NCBI GenBank assembly: GCA_013298845.1
Contig: JAAFJN010000018.1
Coordinates: forward strand, 1-64,000
Direction: 5' to 3'
Length of the DNA: 64,000 bases
Source of the DNA: Chitinophagales bacterium
Lineage (GTDB): Bacteria; Bacteroidota; Bacteroidia; Chitinophagales; Saprospiraceae
The notes under the pieces are model-generated. The model was not told where the DNA came from, did not search any database, and saw nothing but the letters and a program-made list of their open reading frames with translations. Below, piece after piece: positions 1-21,113 of the stretch (position 1 is the stretch's first letter; every line of letters starts with the position of its first letter). The translations under genes and the position numbers were made by a program.

Positions 1-119
1 ATGGCAAAACCTATTACGACCTCACATTCCGCTTTTCGGTGAATATTTACTCCTTTGGCAACGTACTTTGGACCACTTTTGAAGACGGAGAATTTGGGTT
101 TACAGTAGAAATAGAATGA
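1..119 (+). CDS. 3' end of a lipoprotein paralogue, cut by window edge
   Basis: Only the last 38 codons and the stop are present. They read in frame from position 3 (GKTYYDLTF...) to TGA at 117-119 and match the C-terminus of the complete paralogues at 209-952 and 2889-3614. At the codon for the residue before FRF this fragment has ACA (Thr), as in the 2889 copy, while the 209 and 1042 copies have GCA (Ala). This shows that the tandem array continues beyond the left edge. The 5' part, including any signal peptide, lies outside. Function unknown. Confidence 0.8.
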   Translation, partial: GKTYYDLTFRFSVNIYSFGNVLWTTFEDGEFGFTVEIE

Positions 120-153
120 TGGTTTTGATCGTAAATATCAATTAAAACTCCCA

Positions 154-189
154 TTGGCTAGCCATTCCCGCTACGGTTTGGCTGGCCAA
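154..189 (+). repeat. Hairpin 19 nt upstream of lipoprotein copy 1
   Basis: Arms 154-164 and 179-189 pair over 11 positions (one G-U) around a 14-nt loop. The same structure sits at the same distance from the ATG of every complete copy of the array. The last base pair and a G-U pair change in a compensating way in the fourth copy, which supports a role as RNA. It could be a 5'-UTR control element or the terminator of the preceding copy; there is no T-run after it, which favours the former. Confidence 0.6.
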
Positions 190-208
190 TACCACAACTT
201 TTAACACA

Positions 209-952
209 ATGAACAAACTATATTTCTATTGTTTTTTAGCGGTAGTTGCCGCTTTTACCGCTTGTAAAAAAGACAACCCCGCCCCGCCACCCTCCGTTGA
301 AACGGAAAGTATTCTGATTCAATGCTACAAGGATATTGAATTTGCGGAAGCCCCCATTTCAAACAATTCTGCGTGGGTAAAGGCCCTTTTAGGGGAACGC
401 AATTGGGCCTTAGCCGAAGAACATGACGATTATAAATTTTTGGCGTCAACAGGCTCCAAGGACTTTTTTGACACCAAAACGCAGCAAAGTGGCACCTCAA
501 AACTTTTTAATTTCTCTTTGCGCCCACCCACTGTGGATCGAGGGACGATTTTATTCTCTCAATATGCCAAAGAAAAGTTCAGAATGTACATCACAACGCC
601 ATTTGAATACGAAATAGAGGATGTCATCAACGAATACATCAACATCGGCCCACTAAAACTTCAAGATATTGATAACCAATTGGAGCGTGGTACGGTTGGT
701 TTTACGTTTGAGTGCGGCTGCAACGAAAATCCTTCTGCCGGAGATTCTCCCGAAGGAATTTGGTATGAGTCGCGTCTCGGCCCCCAAGACAACCAATTTA
801 TCGAATGCACCAAAAAGGATAAACGGGTGGAAAATGGCAAAACCTATTACGACCTCGCATTCCGCTTTTCGGTGAATATTTACTCCTTTGGCAACGTACT
901 TTGGACCACTTTTGAAGACGGAGAATTTGGGTTTACAGTAGAAATAGAATGA
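209..952 (+). CDS. Putative surface lipoprotein, tandem paralogue 1
   Basis: A 247-residue protein with an SPII signal peptide: positive start, hydrophobic core to about residue 18 and lipobox FTAC, with the lipidated Cys at 19 followed by KKDN and a proline-rich linker (PAPPP). No known domain is recognised in the mature part, which contains paired Cys near the GCGCN motif around residue 170. The gene and its 5' flank are repeated with an 833-bp period at 1042. The CKKDN start resembles lipoprotein export signals of Bacteroidota, so surface exposure is plausible but inferred. Function unknown. Confidence 0.85.
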   Translation: MNKLYFYCFLAVVAAFTACKKDNPAPPPSVETESILIQCYKDIEFAEAPISNNSAWVKALLGERNWALAEEHDDYKFLASTGSKDFFDTKTQQSGTSKLFNFSLRPPTVDRGTILFSQYAKEKFRMYITTPFEYEIEDVINEYINIGPLKLQDIDNQLERGTVGFTFECGCNENPSAGDSPEGIWYESRLGPQDNQFIECTKKDKRVENGKTYYDLAFRFSVNIYSFGNVLWTTFEDGEFGFTVEIE

Positions 953-986
953 TGGTTTTGATCGTAAATATCAATTAAAACTCCCA

Positions 987-1022
987 TTGGCTAGCCATTC
1001 CCGCTACGGTTTGGCTGGCCAA
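987..1022 (+). repeat. Hairpin 19 nt upstream of lipoprotein copy 2
   Basis: Same sequence as the element at 154-189, with arms 987-997 and 1012-1022, ending 19 nt before the ATG at 1042. Confidence 0.6.
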
Positions 1023-1041
1023 TACCACAACTTTTAACACA

Positions 1042-1912
1042 ATGAACAAACTATATTTCTATTGTTTTTTAGCGGTAGTTGCCGCTTTTACCGCTTGTAA
1101 AAAAGACAACCCCGCCCCGCCACCCTCCGTTGAAACGGAAAGTATTCTGATTCAATGCTACAAGGATATTGAATTTGCGGAAGCCCCCATTTCAAACAAT
1201 TCTGCGTGGGTAAAGGCCCTTTTAGGGGAACGCAATTGGGCCTTAGCCGAAGAACATGACGATTATAAATTTTTGGCGTCAACAGGCTCCAAGGACTTTT
1301 TTGACACCAAAACGCAGCAAAGTGGCACCTCAAAACTTTTTAATTTCTCTTTGCGCCCACCCACTGTGGATCGAGGGACGATTTTATTCTCTCAATATGC
1401 CAAAGAAAAGTTCAGAATGTACATCACAACGCCATTTGAATACGAAATAGAGGATGTCATCAACGAATACATCAACATCGGCCCACTAAAACTTCAAGAT
1501 ATTGATAACCAATTGGAGCGTGGTACGGTTGGTTTTACGTTTGAGTGCGGCTGCAACGAAAATCCTTCTGCCGGAGATTCTCCCGAAGGAATTTGGTATG
1601 AGTCGCGTCTCGGCCCCCAAGACAACCAATTTATCGAATGCACCAAAAAGGATAAACGGGTGGAAAATGGCAAAACCTATTACGACCTCGCATTCCGCTT
1701 TTCGGTGAATATTTACTCCTTTGGCAACGTCGCGTCTCGGCCCCCAAGACAACCAATTTATCGAATGCACCAAAAAGGATAAACGGGTGGAAAATGGCAA
1801 AACCTATTACGACCTCGCATTCCGCTTTTCGGTGAATATTTACTCCTTTGGCAACGTGCTTTGGACCACTTTTGAAGACGGAGAGTTTGGCTTTACAGTA
1901 GAAATAGAATGA
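1042..1912 (+). pseudogene. Lipoprotein paralogue 2, frameshifted by internal duplication
   Basis: Starts exactly like paralogue 1 and stays identical through the sequence for FSVNIYSFGNV. There 127 bp (the segment starting at about 1602) are repeated from about 1729. Because 127 is not a multiple of three, the reading frame shifts and stops at 1780-1782, giving a 246-residue product with an altered tail (ASRPPRQPIY...). The normal C-terminal frame, ending LWTTFEDGEFGFTVEIE, is still intact downstream to TGA at 1910-1912 and could be read from a TTG at 1721. It may be a broken gene, a switchable C-terminus, or an assembly error. Confidence 0.75.
1602..1855 (+). repeat. 127-bp internal direct duplication
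   Basis: The segment 1602-1728 is repeated at 1729-1855, joined at the short shared sequence GTCGCG/GTC. This is what one expects of slipped-strand or short-homology recombination. It shifts the frame of the host gene. The second unit differs from paralogue 1 shortly after its end (GTGCTT for GTACTT, GAGTTTGGC for GAATTTGGG), so the tail came from a slightly different copy. Confidence 0.8.
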
Positions 1913-1946
1913 TGGTTTTGATCGTAAATATCAATTAAAACTCCCA

Positions 1947-1982
1947 TTGGCTAGCCATTCCCGCTACGGTTTGGCTGGCCAA
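1947..1982 (+). repeat. Hairpin 19 nt upstream of lipoprotein copy 3
   Basis: Same sequence as the element at 154-189, with arms 1947-1957 and 1972-1982, ending 19 nt before the ATG at 2002, although the gene behind it has a quite different body. Confidence 0.6.
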
Positions 1983-2001
1983 TACCACAACTTTTAACAC
2001 T

Positions 2002-2772
2002 ATGATCAAACTATATTTCTATTGTTTTTTAGCGGTAGTTGCCGCTTTTACCGCTTGTAAAAAGAAGCCCAATTGCCCAAACCAATATCCTGATAGCGTT
2101 TGTGAATTAATGCCCAGTGTTGAATATCCTAAATTAGATATCAGCAACGAGCCCGATGCCTGGTACGAAGCCGACATTGAAGGCTCAACATCCACAATGG
2201 GAACAGGATATGAAAATGACGGGTTTATTTATCGCGGCAAGATGAGTACTTATTTTCGGACAGATACTCCGGAATTGCCGTCTGGCACACCCAAAGTGTA
2301 TGATTTTTTCAATATGGGATTCTCATTATACAAGCCATCAGAAATGTTAGTAGGAAATGCCACTGCTTTTTTAGAATTTCAAGGTCCGGCATTTGATGCC
2401 GACACAATTACAAATTTAAATAATGTAGTCAATACTTTATTAAAACCGGGCATAAAAAAAATAGATGACGGAACTGACATCAAAGGAAGCGGCTGGACAA
2501 TAGGATTGCGAATTACAGACCCCATCAAATACGCAGGGCAAACAAATTATGGCGGGGTAGGATTGTTTACGGTTGGTGCACATAAAGAATCTCCTAATAA
2601 CTATTTTGAAATCACCCGCTCGGAAGCAAAAGACACGGGTAATTTTGTACGCTTTACCATTTGGTGTAATTTTAAAGCCGATTTATACAACGGACTTGGC
2701 GAGCAACCGGGGTGGTATTTTGGCCAAATTCGCAGCGGTAAAGCTAAACTATACGTAGACGTGAATAAGTGA
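2002..2772 (+). CDS. Putative surface lipoprotein, divergent paralogue 3
   Basis: A 256-residue protein whose signal peptide (MIKLYFYCF...FTAC, lipid Cys at 19) and 5' flank are almost identical to those of paralogues 1, 2 and 4, but whose mature part shares no obvious identity with them. The change is sharp, just after CKK. The mature protein has small Cys-containing motifs (PNCPNQYPDSVCEL) and an aromatic-rich C-terminus. The AT content of the body is higher than in the neighbours. It looks like a different passenger behind the same leader cassette. Function unknown. Confidence 0.85.
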   Translation: MIKLYFYCFLAVVAAFTACKKKPNCPNQYPDSVCELMPSVEYPKLDISNEPDAWYEADIEGSTSTMGTGYENDGFIYRGKMSTYFRTDTPELPSGTPKVYDFFNMGFSLYKPSEMLVGNATAFLEFQGPAFDADTITNLNNVVNTLLKPGIKKIDDGTDIKGSGWTIGLRITDPIKYAGQTNYGGVGLFTVGAHKESPNNYFEITRSEAKDTGNFVRFTIWCNFKADLYNGLGEQPGWYFGQIRSGKAKLYVDVNK

Positions 2773-2834
2773 AAAGCGAAAAGTGAAGAACGAAAAGTGA
2801 ATAGTTCGTATCAAAACCATTCAAATTACCGGGT

Positions 2835-2869
2835 TTGGCCAGCCTTTACGCCACAGTAAGGCTGGCCAA
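2835..2869 (+). repeat. Hairpin 19 nt upstream of lipoprotein copy 4 (covarying)
   Basis: Perfect 12-bp arms at 2835-2846 and 2858-2869 with an 11-nt loop. Compared with the copies at 154, 987 and 1947 the loop is different, but pairing is kept: the G-U pair becomes G-C, the A-T pair next to the loop becomes T-A, and a T-T mismatch becomes T-A. The distance to the ATG is again 19 nt. Confidence 0.65.
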
Positions 2870-2888
2870 TACCACAACTTTTAACACA

Positions 2889-3614
2889 ATGAACAAACTA
2901 TATTTCTATTGTTTTTTAGCGGTAGTTGCCGCTTTTACCGCTTGTAAAAAAGACAATCCCGCCCCGCCGCCCACCGTTGAAACGGATGCCGACATGATTG
3001 CCTGCTACCAAGACATTAAGTTTAATCAGGCACCTACCAAAAACGCAACGGCTTGGCTAAAGGCAAAAATTGGAGAGATAGATTGGTCGCTGGCCGAAGG
3101 GCACGAGGACTATCAATTTTTGGTAGGACAAGGAACGAAGGGCCTACATAGCACGGGTGATTCTTTGCTCGCTACAACTTGGGGAACACTTAGTTTTTCG
3201 TTGAGGCCCCCCTCTACTTTTACCGGGGTATATGGAAAAACCCCGCACGCAGCGGAGCGTTTCAGGATGTACGTCACCGCTCCATTTGATTACAGCGTTA
3301 AAGACATCGTGGAGCAATACATCAAAGTTGGCCCTTTAAAATGGCACGATCCCTCCAACGCATCGGAACCGGGGAACTTCGGTGTTACTTTCGACTGTCG
3401 CTGTGACCAAGGCGGCGGCCTTTGGTACGAATCACACTTCGGCCCCCAAGACAACCAGTTTATCGAATGCACCAAAAAGGATAAACGGGTGGAAAATGGC
3501 AAAACCTATTACGACCTCACATTCCGCTTTTCGGTGAATATTTACTCCTTTGGCAACGTACTTTGGACCACTTTTGAAGACGGAGAATTTGGGTTTACAG
3601 TAGAAATAGAATGA
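2889..3614 (+). CDS. Putative surface lipoprotein, mosaic paralogue 4
   Basis: A 241-residue protein. The ATG at 2889 is preferred over upstream in-frame codons because it matches the start and the 19-nt hairpin spacing of the other copies. The first 30 residues (signal peptide, lipobox FTAC, CKKDNPAPPP) and the last 60 or so (from FGPQDNQFIEC to TVEIE) match paralogue 1 almost base for base, while the middle 150 residues are only moderately similar. This mosaic suggests gene conversion at both ends or diversification of the middle. Function unknown; exposed location inferred from the lipoprotein signal. Confidence 0.85.
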   Translation: MNKLYFYCFLAVVAAFTACKKDNPAPPPTVETDADMIACYQDIKFNQAPTKNATAWLKAKIGEIDWSLAEGHEDYQFLVGQGTKGLHSTGDSLLATTWGTLSFSLRPPSTFTGVYGKTPHAAERFRMYVTAPFDYSVKDIVEQYIKVGPLKWHDPSNASEPGNFGVTFDCRCDQGGGLWYESHFGPQDNQFIECTKKDKRVENGKTYYDLTFRFSVNIYSFGNVLWTTFEDGEFGFTVEIE

Positions 3615-3872
3615 TGGTTTTTTGATTTAAGATCCCTAATGCAAGATTTTTATAAATTTATAAATTTTTATAAAATATAATTTACACACCAAAACAGCCT
3701 CAAGGCCACTTTGGATTGTTCGCTTTTGTTACTAATGGCAAGCCCGTAGATTCCTACTGAATGACAAAGCCACACAACGGCAGCAGTACATATTCAACAA
3801 GTCGTGACACCTTTGTCTGAAGTCTAATCTCACTCATCACTCATCACTCATCACTCATCACTCCTAAAAAAA
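3615..3872. other. AT-rich intergenic region with heptamer repeats
   Basis: No gene seen. The first part is very AT-rich (stretches of TTTATAAATTT). Near the end, 3831-3863 holds five tandem copies of the heptamer TCATCAC directly after the stop of prfA. It separates two converging genes. Confidence 0.6.
3831..3863. repeat. Heptamer microsatellite (TCATCAC)n
   Basis: About five tandem units of TCATCAC lie 9 nt beyond the prfA stop codon. It is non-coding; unit number probably varies between strains. Confidence 0.85.
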
Positions 3873-12463: not shown

Positions 12464-14680
12464 ATGATGAAATATCTGCTTTTTCCCCTGCTCCTGGTGG
12501 CCACCGCCGATCTGGTGGCCCAAAACCCAATCGCTCCCAATGAATCTGCACAATTTGATTGGCGTGGTTTTGCCAAAATAACAAAGAAAGAAAACGATCA
12601 GTCTTTCAATTATCTCTTAGATACGACGGGGCGCATTTACCGGGTCGCCTACGACATAAAAGACCTGAGCGCCGACATTACCGCTTTGGATCTTTCGGAA
12701 AAACAATTAGGCGCTATTCCGGCTGTTGTTTTTAAACACTCTCAATTAAAGGTGTTGTTGCTCAATAACAATCGACTCACCTCCCTGCCCGCTCAAATTG
12801 GGGATTTGAAAAATTTGACGATGCTGGATTTGAATGGTAATCGGTTAACCACCCTGCCTGCTCAAATCTGGGAATTGAAACAGTTAACAGCATTGGATTT
12901 AAGCCGCAATCAATTAAACTTCCTGCCCGCTACAATAGGCAAATTGAACAATTTGACAGCGTTGTATTTGTATGCCAATCAATTAACCACTTTGCCCGAC
13001 CAGATCGGCGAATTGAAAAGTTTGACGATGCTGGATTTGAATGGTAATCGATTAACCATCCTGCCCGTTCAAATCTGGGAGTTGAAACAGTTGACAGCGT
13101 TGCATTTGTTTTCCAATCAATTAACCACTTTGCCCGACCAGATCGGCGAATTAAAAAATTTGATGGTGTTGAATTTAGGCCGCAATCAATTAACCGCCCT
13201 GCCCAATCAAATCGAGAAATTGAGAAATTTGATAACGTTGCATTTAAGTCACAATCAATTAACCGCCTTGCCCGCTCAAATTGGGGCGTTAAAAAATTTG
13301 AATACCTTAAATTTAAGTCACAACAGATTCACTACACTGCCCAATCAAATCGAGAAATTGAGAAATTTGATAACGTTGCATTTAAGTCACAATCAATTAA
13401 CTGCCCTGCCCGCTCAGATTGGGGCGTTAAAAAATTTGAATACCTTAAATTTAAGTTACAACAGATTCACCACGCTGCCCACCCAAATTGGAGAATTGAA
13501 AAACTTAGTATTGTTGGATATTCAGGGAAACAAGACGATTGATCTGCAAAACATCAGCCGTATTTCCAAAGTAAATTCGAAGAAAATTCAATTCTCTTTG
13601 GAGCAATATGCCCAAGCAGAAGAGGATATTTTGCTAATAAGAATTTCTAAAGAAACTGTTTTTTTTGCGCAAAATGGAGAAAATATTAATTTGACTACCT
13701 TGGATTTAAGTAAAAATGAACTATCTGCCCTGCCCGCTCAAACGGTGAAACTGAAAAATTTGACATCGTTGGATTTATCCGGCAATCAATTAATGACCCT
13801 ACCCGCTGAAATTGGGGAATTAAAAAATTTAATAACCTTGGATCTGCATTACAACAAATTGATTTTCCTCCCCACTCAAATCGGGGAATTGAAAAATTTG
13901 ACAACCTTGGATCTGACGGCCAATCAATTAACTACCCTATCCGCTACCATCGGAGAATTGAAAAACTTGATAACGTTGGATTTATCTGTCAATCAACTAA
14001 CCACCCTACCCGCTACCATCGGGGAATTGAAAAATTTGACAAGGTTACACTTGAGTACCAATCAATTAACTGATCTACCAACCTGGATCGGAGAATTAAC
14101 AAACTTGACTACCTTGATCGTGAACCGTAATTCACTAACCTCTTTCCCCACTCAAATTGGAGAATTGAAAAATTTGACAGAGTTAGTTTTAAGTGACAAC
14201 CAATTAACTGCTCTGCCTGCTCAATTCTGGGAATTGAAAAATTTGACAAACCTGAATTTAAGTTACAACAAACTCACCGCGCTCCCCAATCAAATTGGAG
14301 CATTGAAAAACTTGCGATATTTAACCATGGATGGCAATCAATTCACCGCGCTGCCGGATCAAATCGGGGAGTTGCAAAATTTGACAAATTTATACTCAAG
14401 TAACAACCAGTTGAGTATTTTGTCTGCTCAAATCGGGGAGTTAAAAAATTTGGCAGAGTTGGATGTGAGTAAAAACCAATTAACTACTTTGCCTACTGAA
14501 ATTGTAGCATTAAAAAATTTGACAACGCTGATTTTGGGTGAAAATAAACTAACAGCCCTGCCCGACCAAATCAAAGAGTTGAAAAATTTGACATATTTGG
14601 ACTTAAAAGGCAATCCCATTCCCGAGTCCACCATAGAGACCCTACGCAGAGCGATGCCATGGTGTACAATACAGTTTTGA
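12464..14680 (+). CDS. Secreted leucine-rich repeat protein
   Basis: A 738-residue protein with a signal peptide (MMKYLLFPLLLVATADLVAQ). From about residue 70 it consists of 23-residue LRRs of the type LTxLxLxxNxLTxLPxQIGELKN. There are about 13 in a first block (to about 355), then a 55-residue non-LRR insert (ISRISKVNSKKIQFS...ENIN), then about 13 more and a short cap ending WCTIQF. Such LPxxI repeats form a curved solenoid used for protein binding; the ligand is unknown. No T9SS tail or membrane anchor is seen, so export beyond the periplasm is uncertain. Two adjacent repeats are duplicated as a 138-bp DNA repeat. Confidence 0.92.
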   Translation: MMKYLLFPLLLVATADLVAQNPIAPNESAQFDWRGFAKITKKENDQSFNYLLDTTGRIYRVAYDIKDLSADITALDLSEKQLGAIPAVVFKHSQLKVLLLNNNRLTSLPAQIGDLKNLTMLDLNGNRLTTLPAQIWELKQLTALDLSRNQLNFLPATIGKLNNLTALYLYANQLTTLPDQIGELKSLTMLDLNGNRLTILPVQIWELKQLTALHLFSNQLTTLPDQIGELKNLMVLNLGRNQLTALPNQIEKLRNLITLHLSHNQLTALPAQIGALKNLNTLNLSHNRFTTLPNQIEKLRNLITLHLSHNQLTALPAQIGALKNLNTLNLSYNRFTTLPTQIGELKNLVLLDIQGNKTIDLQNISRISKVNSKKIQFSLEQYAQAEEDILLIRISKETVFFAQNGENINLTTLDLSKNELSALPAQTVKLKNLTSLDLSGNQLMTLPAEIGELKNLITLDLHYNKLIFLPTQIGELKNLTTLDLTANQLTTLSATIGELKNLITLDLSVNQLTTLPATIGELKNLTRLHLSTNQLTDLPTWIGELTNLTTLIVNRNSLTSFPTQIGELKNLTELVLSDNQLTALPAQFWELKNLTNLNLSYNKLTALPNQIGALKNLRYLTMDGNQFTALPDQIGELQNLTNLYSSNNQLSILSAQIGELKNLAELDVSKNQLTTLPTEIVALKNLTTLILGENKLTALPDQIKELKNLTYLDLKGNPIPESTIETLRRAMPWCTIQF
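13202..13477 (+). repeat. 138-bp tandem duplication inside the LRR gene
   Basis: The segment starting at 13202 recurs at 13340 with only a few base changes. It encodes two LRRs (46 residues), so the frame is kept. This is recent growth of the solenoid by unequal exchange. Confidence 0.8.
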
Positions 14681-20920: not shown

Positions 20921-21110
20921 GAGGTACAGGCACGTGCATTCGCCGATCGGGGATCGGCGGTACTTTCTCACCATTGTTATCTTTACGGAAATTTGAGGTA
21001 CAGGCACGTGCATTCGCCGATCGGGGATCGGCGGTACTTTCCCACCATTGTTATCTTTACGGAAATTTGAGGTACAGGCACGTGCATTCGCCGATCGGGG
21101 ATCGGCGGTA
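20921..21110. repeat. Tandem 74-bp repeats, each with a hairpin
   Basis: Units start at 20921, 20995 and 21069 (spacing 74 and 74); the last is cut short by the MOSC gene end. Each holds the perfect stem CGCCGATC-GGG-GATCGGCG (20941-20959, 21015-21033, 21089-21107) and the sequence TTGTTATCTTTACGG. They lie between two converging genes. The unspaced, direct, near-identical units argue for a REP/BIME-type element rather than a CRISPR. Confidence 0.85.
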
Positions 21111-21113
21111 CAG

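What the first reader, a model, noticed from the sequence alone, without database searches (positions are those of the whole stretch)
1..3614. Mosaic tandem lipoprotein array with shared ends and swapped middles
Four complete copies plus a cut one share a near-identical leader (hairpin, signal peptide, first 30 residues). Copies 1, 2 and 4, and the visible end of copy 0, also share the last 60 residues at DNA level. The middle of copy 4 differs from copy 1, and copy 3 shares only the leader. Constant ends with variable middles are the pattern expected from recombination-driven diversification of a surface protein. Seen: the sequence blocks. Inferred: surface exposure and variation.
Basis: partly seen in the sequence, partly recalled or inferred. 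Interest (0 to 1): 0.7.

Follow-up and report, generated by a model that had tools for sequence, protein, structure and literature searches.

The report
Tandem lipoprotein genes reshuffled by recombination
A row of related lipoprotein genes in a Saprospiraceae bacterium keeps nearly identical ends but old, different middles, most likely because neighbouring copies recombine at their junctions; one apparently broken copy is most likely an assembly error.

Summary
The sequence blocks are real; the copy list needs correcting. The window starts at a contig edge, and the array continues on contig C27, which adds one full copy-3-type gene and the first 136 codons of "copy 0". Copy 2's frameshift comes from an exact 127-base duplication at a branch of a k=127 assembly graph, almost certainly an artefact; the number of identical 833-base units is unresolved (two or more). 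In four of eight paralogue pairs the 3' end is far more alike than the middle (0 of 2000 shuffles); for copies 1/4 the ends have no synonymous differences and the middles are near saturation. That indicates recombination, not constraint. Independent support: G007 has two family genes in tandem; G009 has, at the same place, one chimera joined in a 36-base repeat at the lipobox. Copy 3 is a similar leader/body chimera. Active variation, selection for diversity and surface exposure are not shown. The family has no Pfam match above cut-off, occurs in 20 of 393 genomes sampled from its order, and often follows a second lipoprotein gene. It works like S. aureus csa1/lpl "gene accordions", without detected sequence relation.

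The parts
1..119 (+). 3' end of copy 0 (its first 136 codons most likely at C27:410-3, minus strand); bases 1-126 are the assembly-graph overlap at the contig start
153..190 (+). intergenic hairpin upstream of copy 1 (-24.1 kcal/mol, z -5.65)
209..952 (+). copy 1, A-type lipoprotein, 247 aa; lipobox Cys19
986..1023 (+). same hairpin upstream of copy 2 (identical sequence, +833)
1042..1782 (+). copy 2 as assembled, identical to copy 1 until 1730, then frameshifted by the duplication
1602..1857 (.). exact 127-nt tandem duplication (1602-1730 = 1729-1857), most likely an assembly artefact at a k=127 branch node
1727..1912 (+). 3' end inferred to belong to copy 2 (differs from copy 1 from base 1858)
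1946..1983 (+). same hairpin upstream of copy 3 (within the 109-nt exact repeat)
2002..2772 (+). copy 3, B-type lipoprotein, 256 aa: A-type leader joined near the lipobox to a B-type body
2761..2805 (.). short dispersed intergenic repeat (72 further short matches in this genome)
2834..2871 (+). second hairpin type upstream of copy 4 (-29.3 kcal/mol, z -6.49)
2889..3614 (+). copy 4, A-type lipoprotein, 241 aa; 5' half near-identical to copy 0 on C27
3299..3495 (+). part of copy 4 between the two graph overlaps; inferred collapsed repeat shared with copy 0

Best explanation
This is a head-to-tail array of at least six lipoprotein genes (C27 gene A, copy 0, copy 1, copy 2, copy 3, copy 4; copy number unresolved) of a Saprospiraceae family without a Pfam model, cut by a contig break. 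Each gene junction (last ~60 codons, intergenic hairpin, next leader) is nearly identical to other junctions, so ordinary homologous recombination works there: unequal crossover adds or removes whole genes, gene conversion keeps ends alike, and crossovers near the lipobox swap leaders. The middles are old paralogous segments mostly too different to recombine. Shown: block structure, synonymous pattern, change points, a natural chimera in a related genome, the k-length duplication at a graph branch. Inferred: RecA-type mechanism, adjacency of C27 and C10, outer-membrane location, and that the middle carries the variable ligand- or partner-facing surface.
For: Copy 1 vs 4: no synonymous difference in the first 20 and last 48 alignment codons; pS 0.61-0.98 in the seven windows of codons 41-180 and 0.59 in 181-200. 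C27 gene A/copy 3 and the G007 pair show the same contrast with a few synonymous differences in the last block (2 and 4). Change points lie 58, 60 and 66 codons before the stop in three pairs and 38 in a fourth. 0 of 2000 shuffles in 4 of 8 pairs. G007 has two tandem genes with a 36-nt exact repeat at the lipobox and a 228-nt, 98% 3' repeat; G009 has one gene colinear with the first copy up to that repeat and with the second after it. 710 nt at 95.8% run from the end of C27 gene A into copy 0 against copies 3/4. C27 and C10 starts overlap copy 4 by exactly 126 nt.
Against: No reads or second strain of the same species could be examined. Four of 8 pairs lack a shared 3' block: two C13 pairs, the C1 pair, and the non-tandem G009 pair (4 of 2000 on one of two measures, but not at the 3' end). 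Copy 3 and gene A also share a 160-nt, 91% stretch outside the ends, so 'ends only' is not exact, and their leaders differ. No test separated gene conversion from crossover; the direction of the G007/G009 change is inferred. Adjacency of C27 and C10 rests on graph overlaps.
Confidence: 0.75

Rival explanations
1. The whole mosaic is an assembly artefact: short-read paths through repeats were stitched wrongly.
For: Contig edge in the array, exact k-overlaps, an 833-nt graph loop and a 127-nt duplication at a branch node.
Against: Copy 3 and C27 gene A, and copies 1 and 4, differ across their middles, which graph errors do not create. The same architecture occurs in G007 (listed with 9 contigs) in distant relatives of these genes.
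Confidence: 0.07
2. No recombination: the ends are alike because selection holds them constant while middles drift or diversify.
For: By eye the 3' block is among the best-aligned parts of the family, and both low-confidence models place three beta strands there.
Against: Protein-level constraint does not hold synonymous sites at zero difference while neighbouring codons are near saturation; intergenic DNA is equally conserved; between the non-tandem G009 paralogues the 3' end is no more alike than the middle (0.61 vs 0.64).
Confidence: 0.05
3. A dedicated antigenic or phase variation system (vls/pilS-like), with donor cassettes feeding one expressed gene.
For: Constant ends and variable middles; a strong hairpin before each gene; lipobox present; one short near-identical tract inside the otherwise diverged copy 3/gene A pair (window 2073-2232, 91%) could be a donor tract.
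Against: Copies 1, 3 and 4 and C27 gene A each have their own leader, start and complete frame, so no expressed/silent distinction is visible; copies 1/4 show no short donor tracts in 20-codon windows of the middle.
Confidence: 0.08
4. A tandem immunity (polyimmunity-like) array: the upstream helical/hydrophobic-hairpin lipoprotein is a membrane-active effector and the tandem lipoproteins protect against it and its variants.
For: A partner lipoprotein with a central hydrophobic, Gly-rich stretch and a C-terminal part rich in predicted-beta-like sequence (by eye) lies directly upstream on the same strand in 11 of 25 evaluable loci, plus 2 of similar architecture only. Polyimmunity loci are tandem paralogues (PMC3482391, passages).
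Against: 12 of 25 loci lack the partner in the flank held; no toxin or immunity domain was found above cut-off; the partner itself has a lipobox; one partner paralogue (C23) has no such lipoprotein beside it.
Confidence: 0.12

Closest known systems
Staphylococcus aureus csa1 / lpl tandem lipoprotein clusters ('gene accordions'; PMC7360770, abstract and passages; PMC4470592, passages)
   Same: Tandem paralogous lipoprotein genes of ~770 bp with lipoboxes; recombination between shared stretches changes copy number and has been proposed to make chimeras.
   Different: No sequence relation was detected (Pfam scans without a match above cut-off). In lpl the core is conserved and the flanks vary; here the ends are conserved and the middle varies. 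Copy-number change was measured in S. aureus, only inferred here.
Borrelia vls and lp54 PFam54 arrays (PMC11389397, passages; vls mechanism recalled)
   Same: Lipoprotein gene arrays; PFam54 arrays vary in gene number between strains, vls recombines.
   Different: No silent cassettes or single expression site visible here; no Pfam match above cut-off.
Polyimmunity loci of polymorphic toxin systems (PMC3482391, passages)
   Same: Tandem diverged paralogues; such loci vary between strains.
   Different: No known immunity or toxin domain found here in Pfam or NCBIfam.

Membership tests
S. aureus tandem lipoproteins (Csa1/Lpl) | Sequence homology to that family (Pfam model of these proteins; the name DUF576 is recalled) | tested here: not met
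   Pfam scan of 3 window proteins: 0 families; 11 family members: only LPAM_1 in 1 of 11, E 0.083
S. aureus tandem lipoproteins (Csa1/Lpl) | Tandem paralogous genes with lipobox signal peptides | tested here: met
   Cys19 followed by KK in copies 1, 3 and 4; judged by eye, no SPII predictor was run
S. aureus tandem lipoproteins (Csa1/Lpl) | Conserved core with variable flanks | tested here: not met
   opposite arrangement
S. aureus tandem lipoproteins (Csa1/Lpl) | Copy number changes by recombination in a clonal population | not testable with these tools
   no reads; only a difference between two genomes of the genus seen
vls-type cassette antigenic variation | One expression site plus silent cassettes lacking their own start (recalled) | tested here: not met
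   complete frames with leaders for copies 1, 3, 4 and C27 gene A
Polyimmunity locus | Members match a known immunity family | tested here: not met
   Searches (Pfam; NCBIfam): no relevant match; PADLOC was not scanned
Polyimmunity locus | Cognate toxin gene adjacent | tested here: inconclusive
   hydrophobic-hairpin partner lipoprotein upstream in 11 of 25 loci, no toxin domain recognised in the partners scanned
Surface-exported lipoproteins with the C. canimorsus export signal (LES) | C-X-K-(D/E)2-X after the lipidated Cys | tested here: not met
   window copies CKKDNP and CKKKPN; met in G007/G009 CKKEEP; consensus from PMC5080379 passages, other Bacteroidota use variants

The most novel reading that the evidence does not exclude
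The array is the variable half of an unnamed Saprospiraceae surface system: a helical, hydrophobic-hairpin lipoprotein plus tandem lipoproteins whose middles form a standing repertoire (immunity to, or recognition of, variants of the partner), kept recombination-ready by identical junction blocks that let genes be gained, lost and given new leaders.
Probability: 0.12. Interest if true: 0.75.

Novelty: new variant of a known kind. Interest (0 to 1): 0.42.

Why it matters
It gives a clean example, read from synonymous sites, of tandem lipoprotein genes in Bacteroidota that keep old variable segments while their junctions are recently homogenised, with a two-gene/one-chimera pair in two related genomes. 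It also points to a lipoprotein family without a Pfam model and with a recurring partner gene, and it warns that a k-length duplication in a short-read assembly can look like a pseudogene.

Tried and rejected
Structure of copy 1 and of the G009 gene: mean pLDDT 40.5 and 32.6, so no fold search was run; both show three C-terminal strands over the constant block, weakly. PDB sequence search: best E 0.18, profile positions 1-35 only. NCBIfam: Riean_0653 in 6 of 11 members (best E 0.0019; the member shown scores 13.2 bits against a cut-off of 57, residues 1-28), three other families once each at E 0.041 or weaker. Relatives in named genomes with copy 1: none, though the tool may leave out the own genome; with the G007/G009 genes: one, JAHBTU010000001.1 Saprospiraceae ACE_BAC3. 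Viral contigs with the same query: none. Hairpin as a dispersed genome element: its exact arms as at copy 4 occur at 3 places, all in this array; the variant arms at copies 1-3 were not searched genome-wide. Hairpin as an intrinsic terminator: no T run follows it, role left open. Positive selection on middles: not supported, but synonymous sites are near saturation, so no formal ratio is given. Literature: in the rows shown by the searches I saw no paper on this Saprospiraceae family; most hits of those searches were not listed.
Full report
OBSERVATION. The window is bases 1-64000 of contig C10 of a 6.37 Mb, 89-contig genome. Open frames of 247, 246, 256 and 241 aa (the last counted from its ATG at 2889) lie at 209-952, 1042-1782, 2002-2772 and 2889-3614.

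ASSEMBLY. Of 62 contig ends examined (42 starts, 20 ends), 5 overlap other held sequence by exactly 126 or 127 bases and three more by 42-46 bases. The first 126 bases of C10 equal 3496-3621, and the first 126 of C27 equal 3173-3298 on the other strand. SPAdes allows k up to 127 and leaves overlaps at contig ends (PMC5481147, passages); the assembler used here is not known. Listing every 126-mer with more than one continuation in the window and in the first 20 kb of C27 gives three right-hand branch points: the C10 start, the C27 end, and one at 772-897 = 1605-1730 = 1732-1857 with exits A, C and G. The C exit creates the 127-base duplication that shifts the frame of copy 2. No other exact tandem duplication with a period of 71 to 300 was found in the 1,262,802 bases scanned, about a fifth of the genome; shorter periods (42-70) do occur. 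I conclude that copy 2 is most likely not naturally truncated. A loop of 833 bases (25-150 = 858-983) means that the number of identical units is two or more.

THE FULL ARRAY. C27, read inwards, carries a 496-aa lipoprotein gene, gene A (C27:531-1295, copy-3 type) and the first 136 codons of a copy-4-type gene before the contig ends. Gene A/copy 0 and copy 3/copy 4 are two versions of one two-gene unit: 710 nt run at 95.8% identity from the last 60 codons of the first gene into the second, while the first gene's middle is only 48-64% identical per 50-nt window over 2240-2589; nearer its start a 160-nt stretch (2073-2232) is 91% identical. The likely order is 496-aa gene, gene A, copy 0, copy 1, copy 2, copy 3, copy 4, then prfA on the opposite strand (named from its sequence, recalled).

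ENDS AND MIDDLES. Codon alignments in 20-codon windows show for copy 1 vs 4 no synonymous difference in the first 20 and the last 48 codons, pS 0.61-0.98 in codons 41-180 and 0.59 in the window 181-200, which holds the joint; pN between 41 and 200 is 0.19-0.60. Copy 3/gene A and the G007 pair have 2 and 4 synonymous differences in the last block and pS mostly above 0.6 in the middle (0.47-0.93 in G007); copy 3/gene A are also identical over codons 41-60, and their leaders differ. Maximum-likelihood change points fall at residue 190 (58 codons from the end) for copies 1/4, 197 (60) for copy 3/gene A, 197 (66) for the G007 pair, and 207 (38) for the G005 pair; on the family alignment these are columns 242, 245, 235 and 261. 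Of eight pairs tested, these four exceed all 2000 codon shuffles; the two C13 pairs (one 94% alike throughout, one 43%), the C1 pair and the non-tandem G009 pair show no 3' block, though the last reached 4 of 2000 on one of two measures. Nothing here shows positive selection, and near-saturated synonymous sites make a formal ratio unsafe.

A NATURAL CHIMERA. In G007 two family members lie in tandem after a TonB-receptor-like gene and before a small gene and an amidohydrolase-like gene (names from sequence, recalled). They share an exact 36-nt repeat at the lipobox and a 228-nt 3' repeat at 98%. In G009 the same locus (aligned blocks 94.6-97.6% identical) holds one gene: it follows the first G007 gene up to the 36-nt repeat and the second from there on. 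A deletion by crossover in the repeat explains this in one step; because the two G007 middles share only 68 of 156 aligned residues (windows 41-200), a recent duplication in G007 does not. Copy 3 of the window is a similar joint: an A-type leader, identical to copy 1 over 57 nt up to the lipobox, on a B-type body, where gene A has a different leader.

FAMILY AND NEIGHBOURS. No Pfam family (0 of 3 window proteins; in 11 members only LPAM_1 once). Single-protein searches of 149 relatives matched copy 1 in 3 and copy 3 in 1, all in the genus. A profile of 11 members matches 17 of 42 genomes of the genus, 10 of these only within the first 91 profile positions; a profile of 18 members matches 20 of 393 genomes sampled from the order at E 1e-5, with at most seven candidates scored per genome. 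No profile search was made outside the order. G009 is named Saprospiraceae bacterium ACE_BAC3; the own genome is in the same genus. From I took 26 loci with E at most 1e-5 over at least 100 profile positions, counting the shared G007/G009 locus once and dropping G265 and G428 (64-68 positions) and the weaker or shorter matches; one (G247) starts at a contig edge, leaving 25. A second lipoprotein of about 400-500 aa, with helical N-terminal part, central hydrophobic stretch and C-terminal part, lies directly upstream in 11 of 25 by sequence similarity (in G003 only a 127-aa piece) and in 2 more by architecture only; 12 lack it in the flank held, mostly 1.5 kb. The C27 member is tied to the others by E 5.7e-7 to one partner and by its 44% paralogue on C23, but was not hit by the partner profile. 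One partner (L136) also scored against the lipoprotein profile. In G009 the partner gene is split in two pieces by a transposase-like frame (recognised by eye). A family of six regulator-like genes in the own genome has three members at the heads of the three own lipoprotein loci, C27, C13 and C1; the other three have no family lipoprotein in the 15-16 kb examined, one of them facing an unrelated 440-aa lipoprotein; the regulator was not found at the G005, G039 or G009 loci.

HAIRPINS. Four junctions folded all have a strong hairpin ending about 17-20 nt before the start codon (-23 to -29 kcal/mol, z -5.0 to -6.5); those before copies 2 and 3 are identical in sequence to that before copy 1. 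No T run follows; function unknown.

MECHANISM AND VERDICT. In tandem, 'shared ends' are one continuous block of roughly 340 bases at an A-A junction (about 177 + 89 + 70, my arithmetic). Ordinary homologous recombination at such blocks changes gene number, homogenises ends and exchanges leaders, leaving diverged middles alone. This works like the csa1/lpl accordions of S. aureus (PMC7360770, PMC4470592; passages seen) but I found no sequence relation, and there the conserved part is the core. Surface display is plausible for a Bacteroidota lipoprotein but the strict C. canimorsus export motif is not met in the window copies. Whether the array varies within a population is untested.

Noticed in passing
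window 2761-2805: A ~45-nt AAAAGTGAA-type intergenic repeat has 72 further short matches across the genome, often in small clusters.
   Followed up: no
window 3830-3863: Short CACTCAT-type 7-nt tandem repeat downstream of the array; a similar run was seen at L083 10355.
   Followed up: no
window 12464-14680: 738-aa leucine-rich-repeat protein with internal repeats (65 nt exact, 138 nt apart).
   Followed up: no
window 20969-21111: 69-nt exact direct repeat at 74-nt spacing beside a MOSC-like gene (name recalled).
   Followed up: no
L009 1360-2850 (C27, minus strand): 496-aa lipoprotein with Gly-rich stretch directly upstream of the array; related genes precede family members in several genomes of the order.
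   Followed up: partly
L009 3126-4133; L118 4662-5657; L119 14047-15021: Regulator-like proteins of one family without a Pfam match above cut-off at the heads of all three own-genome lipoprotein loci.
   Followed up: partly
L122 15288-17897: Partner gene of the second G009 locus is split by a transposase-like frame.
   Followed up: no
L119 7113-7613, L123 8333-8971, L134 2310-2777, L139 2291-2785: A small membrane-protein-like gene with similar ending follows the lipoprotein in several loci (judged by eye).
   Followed up: no
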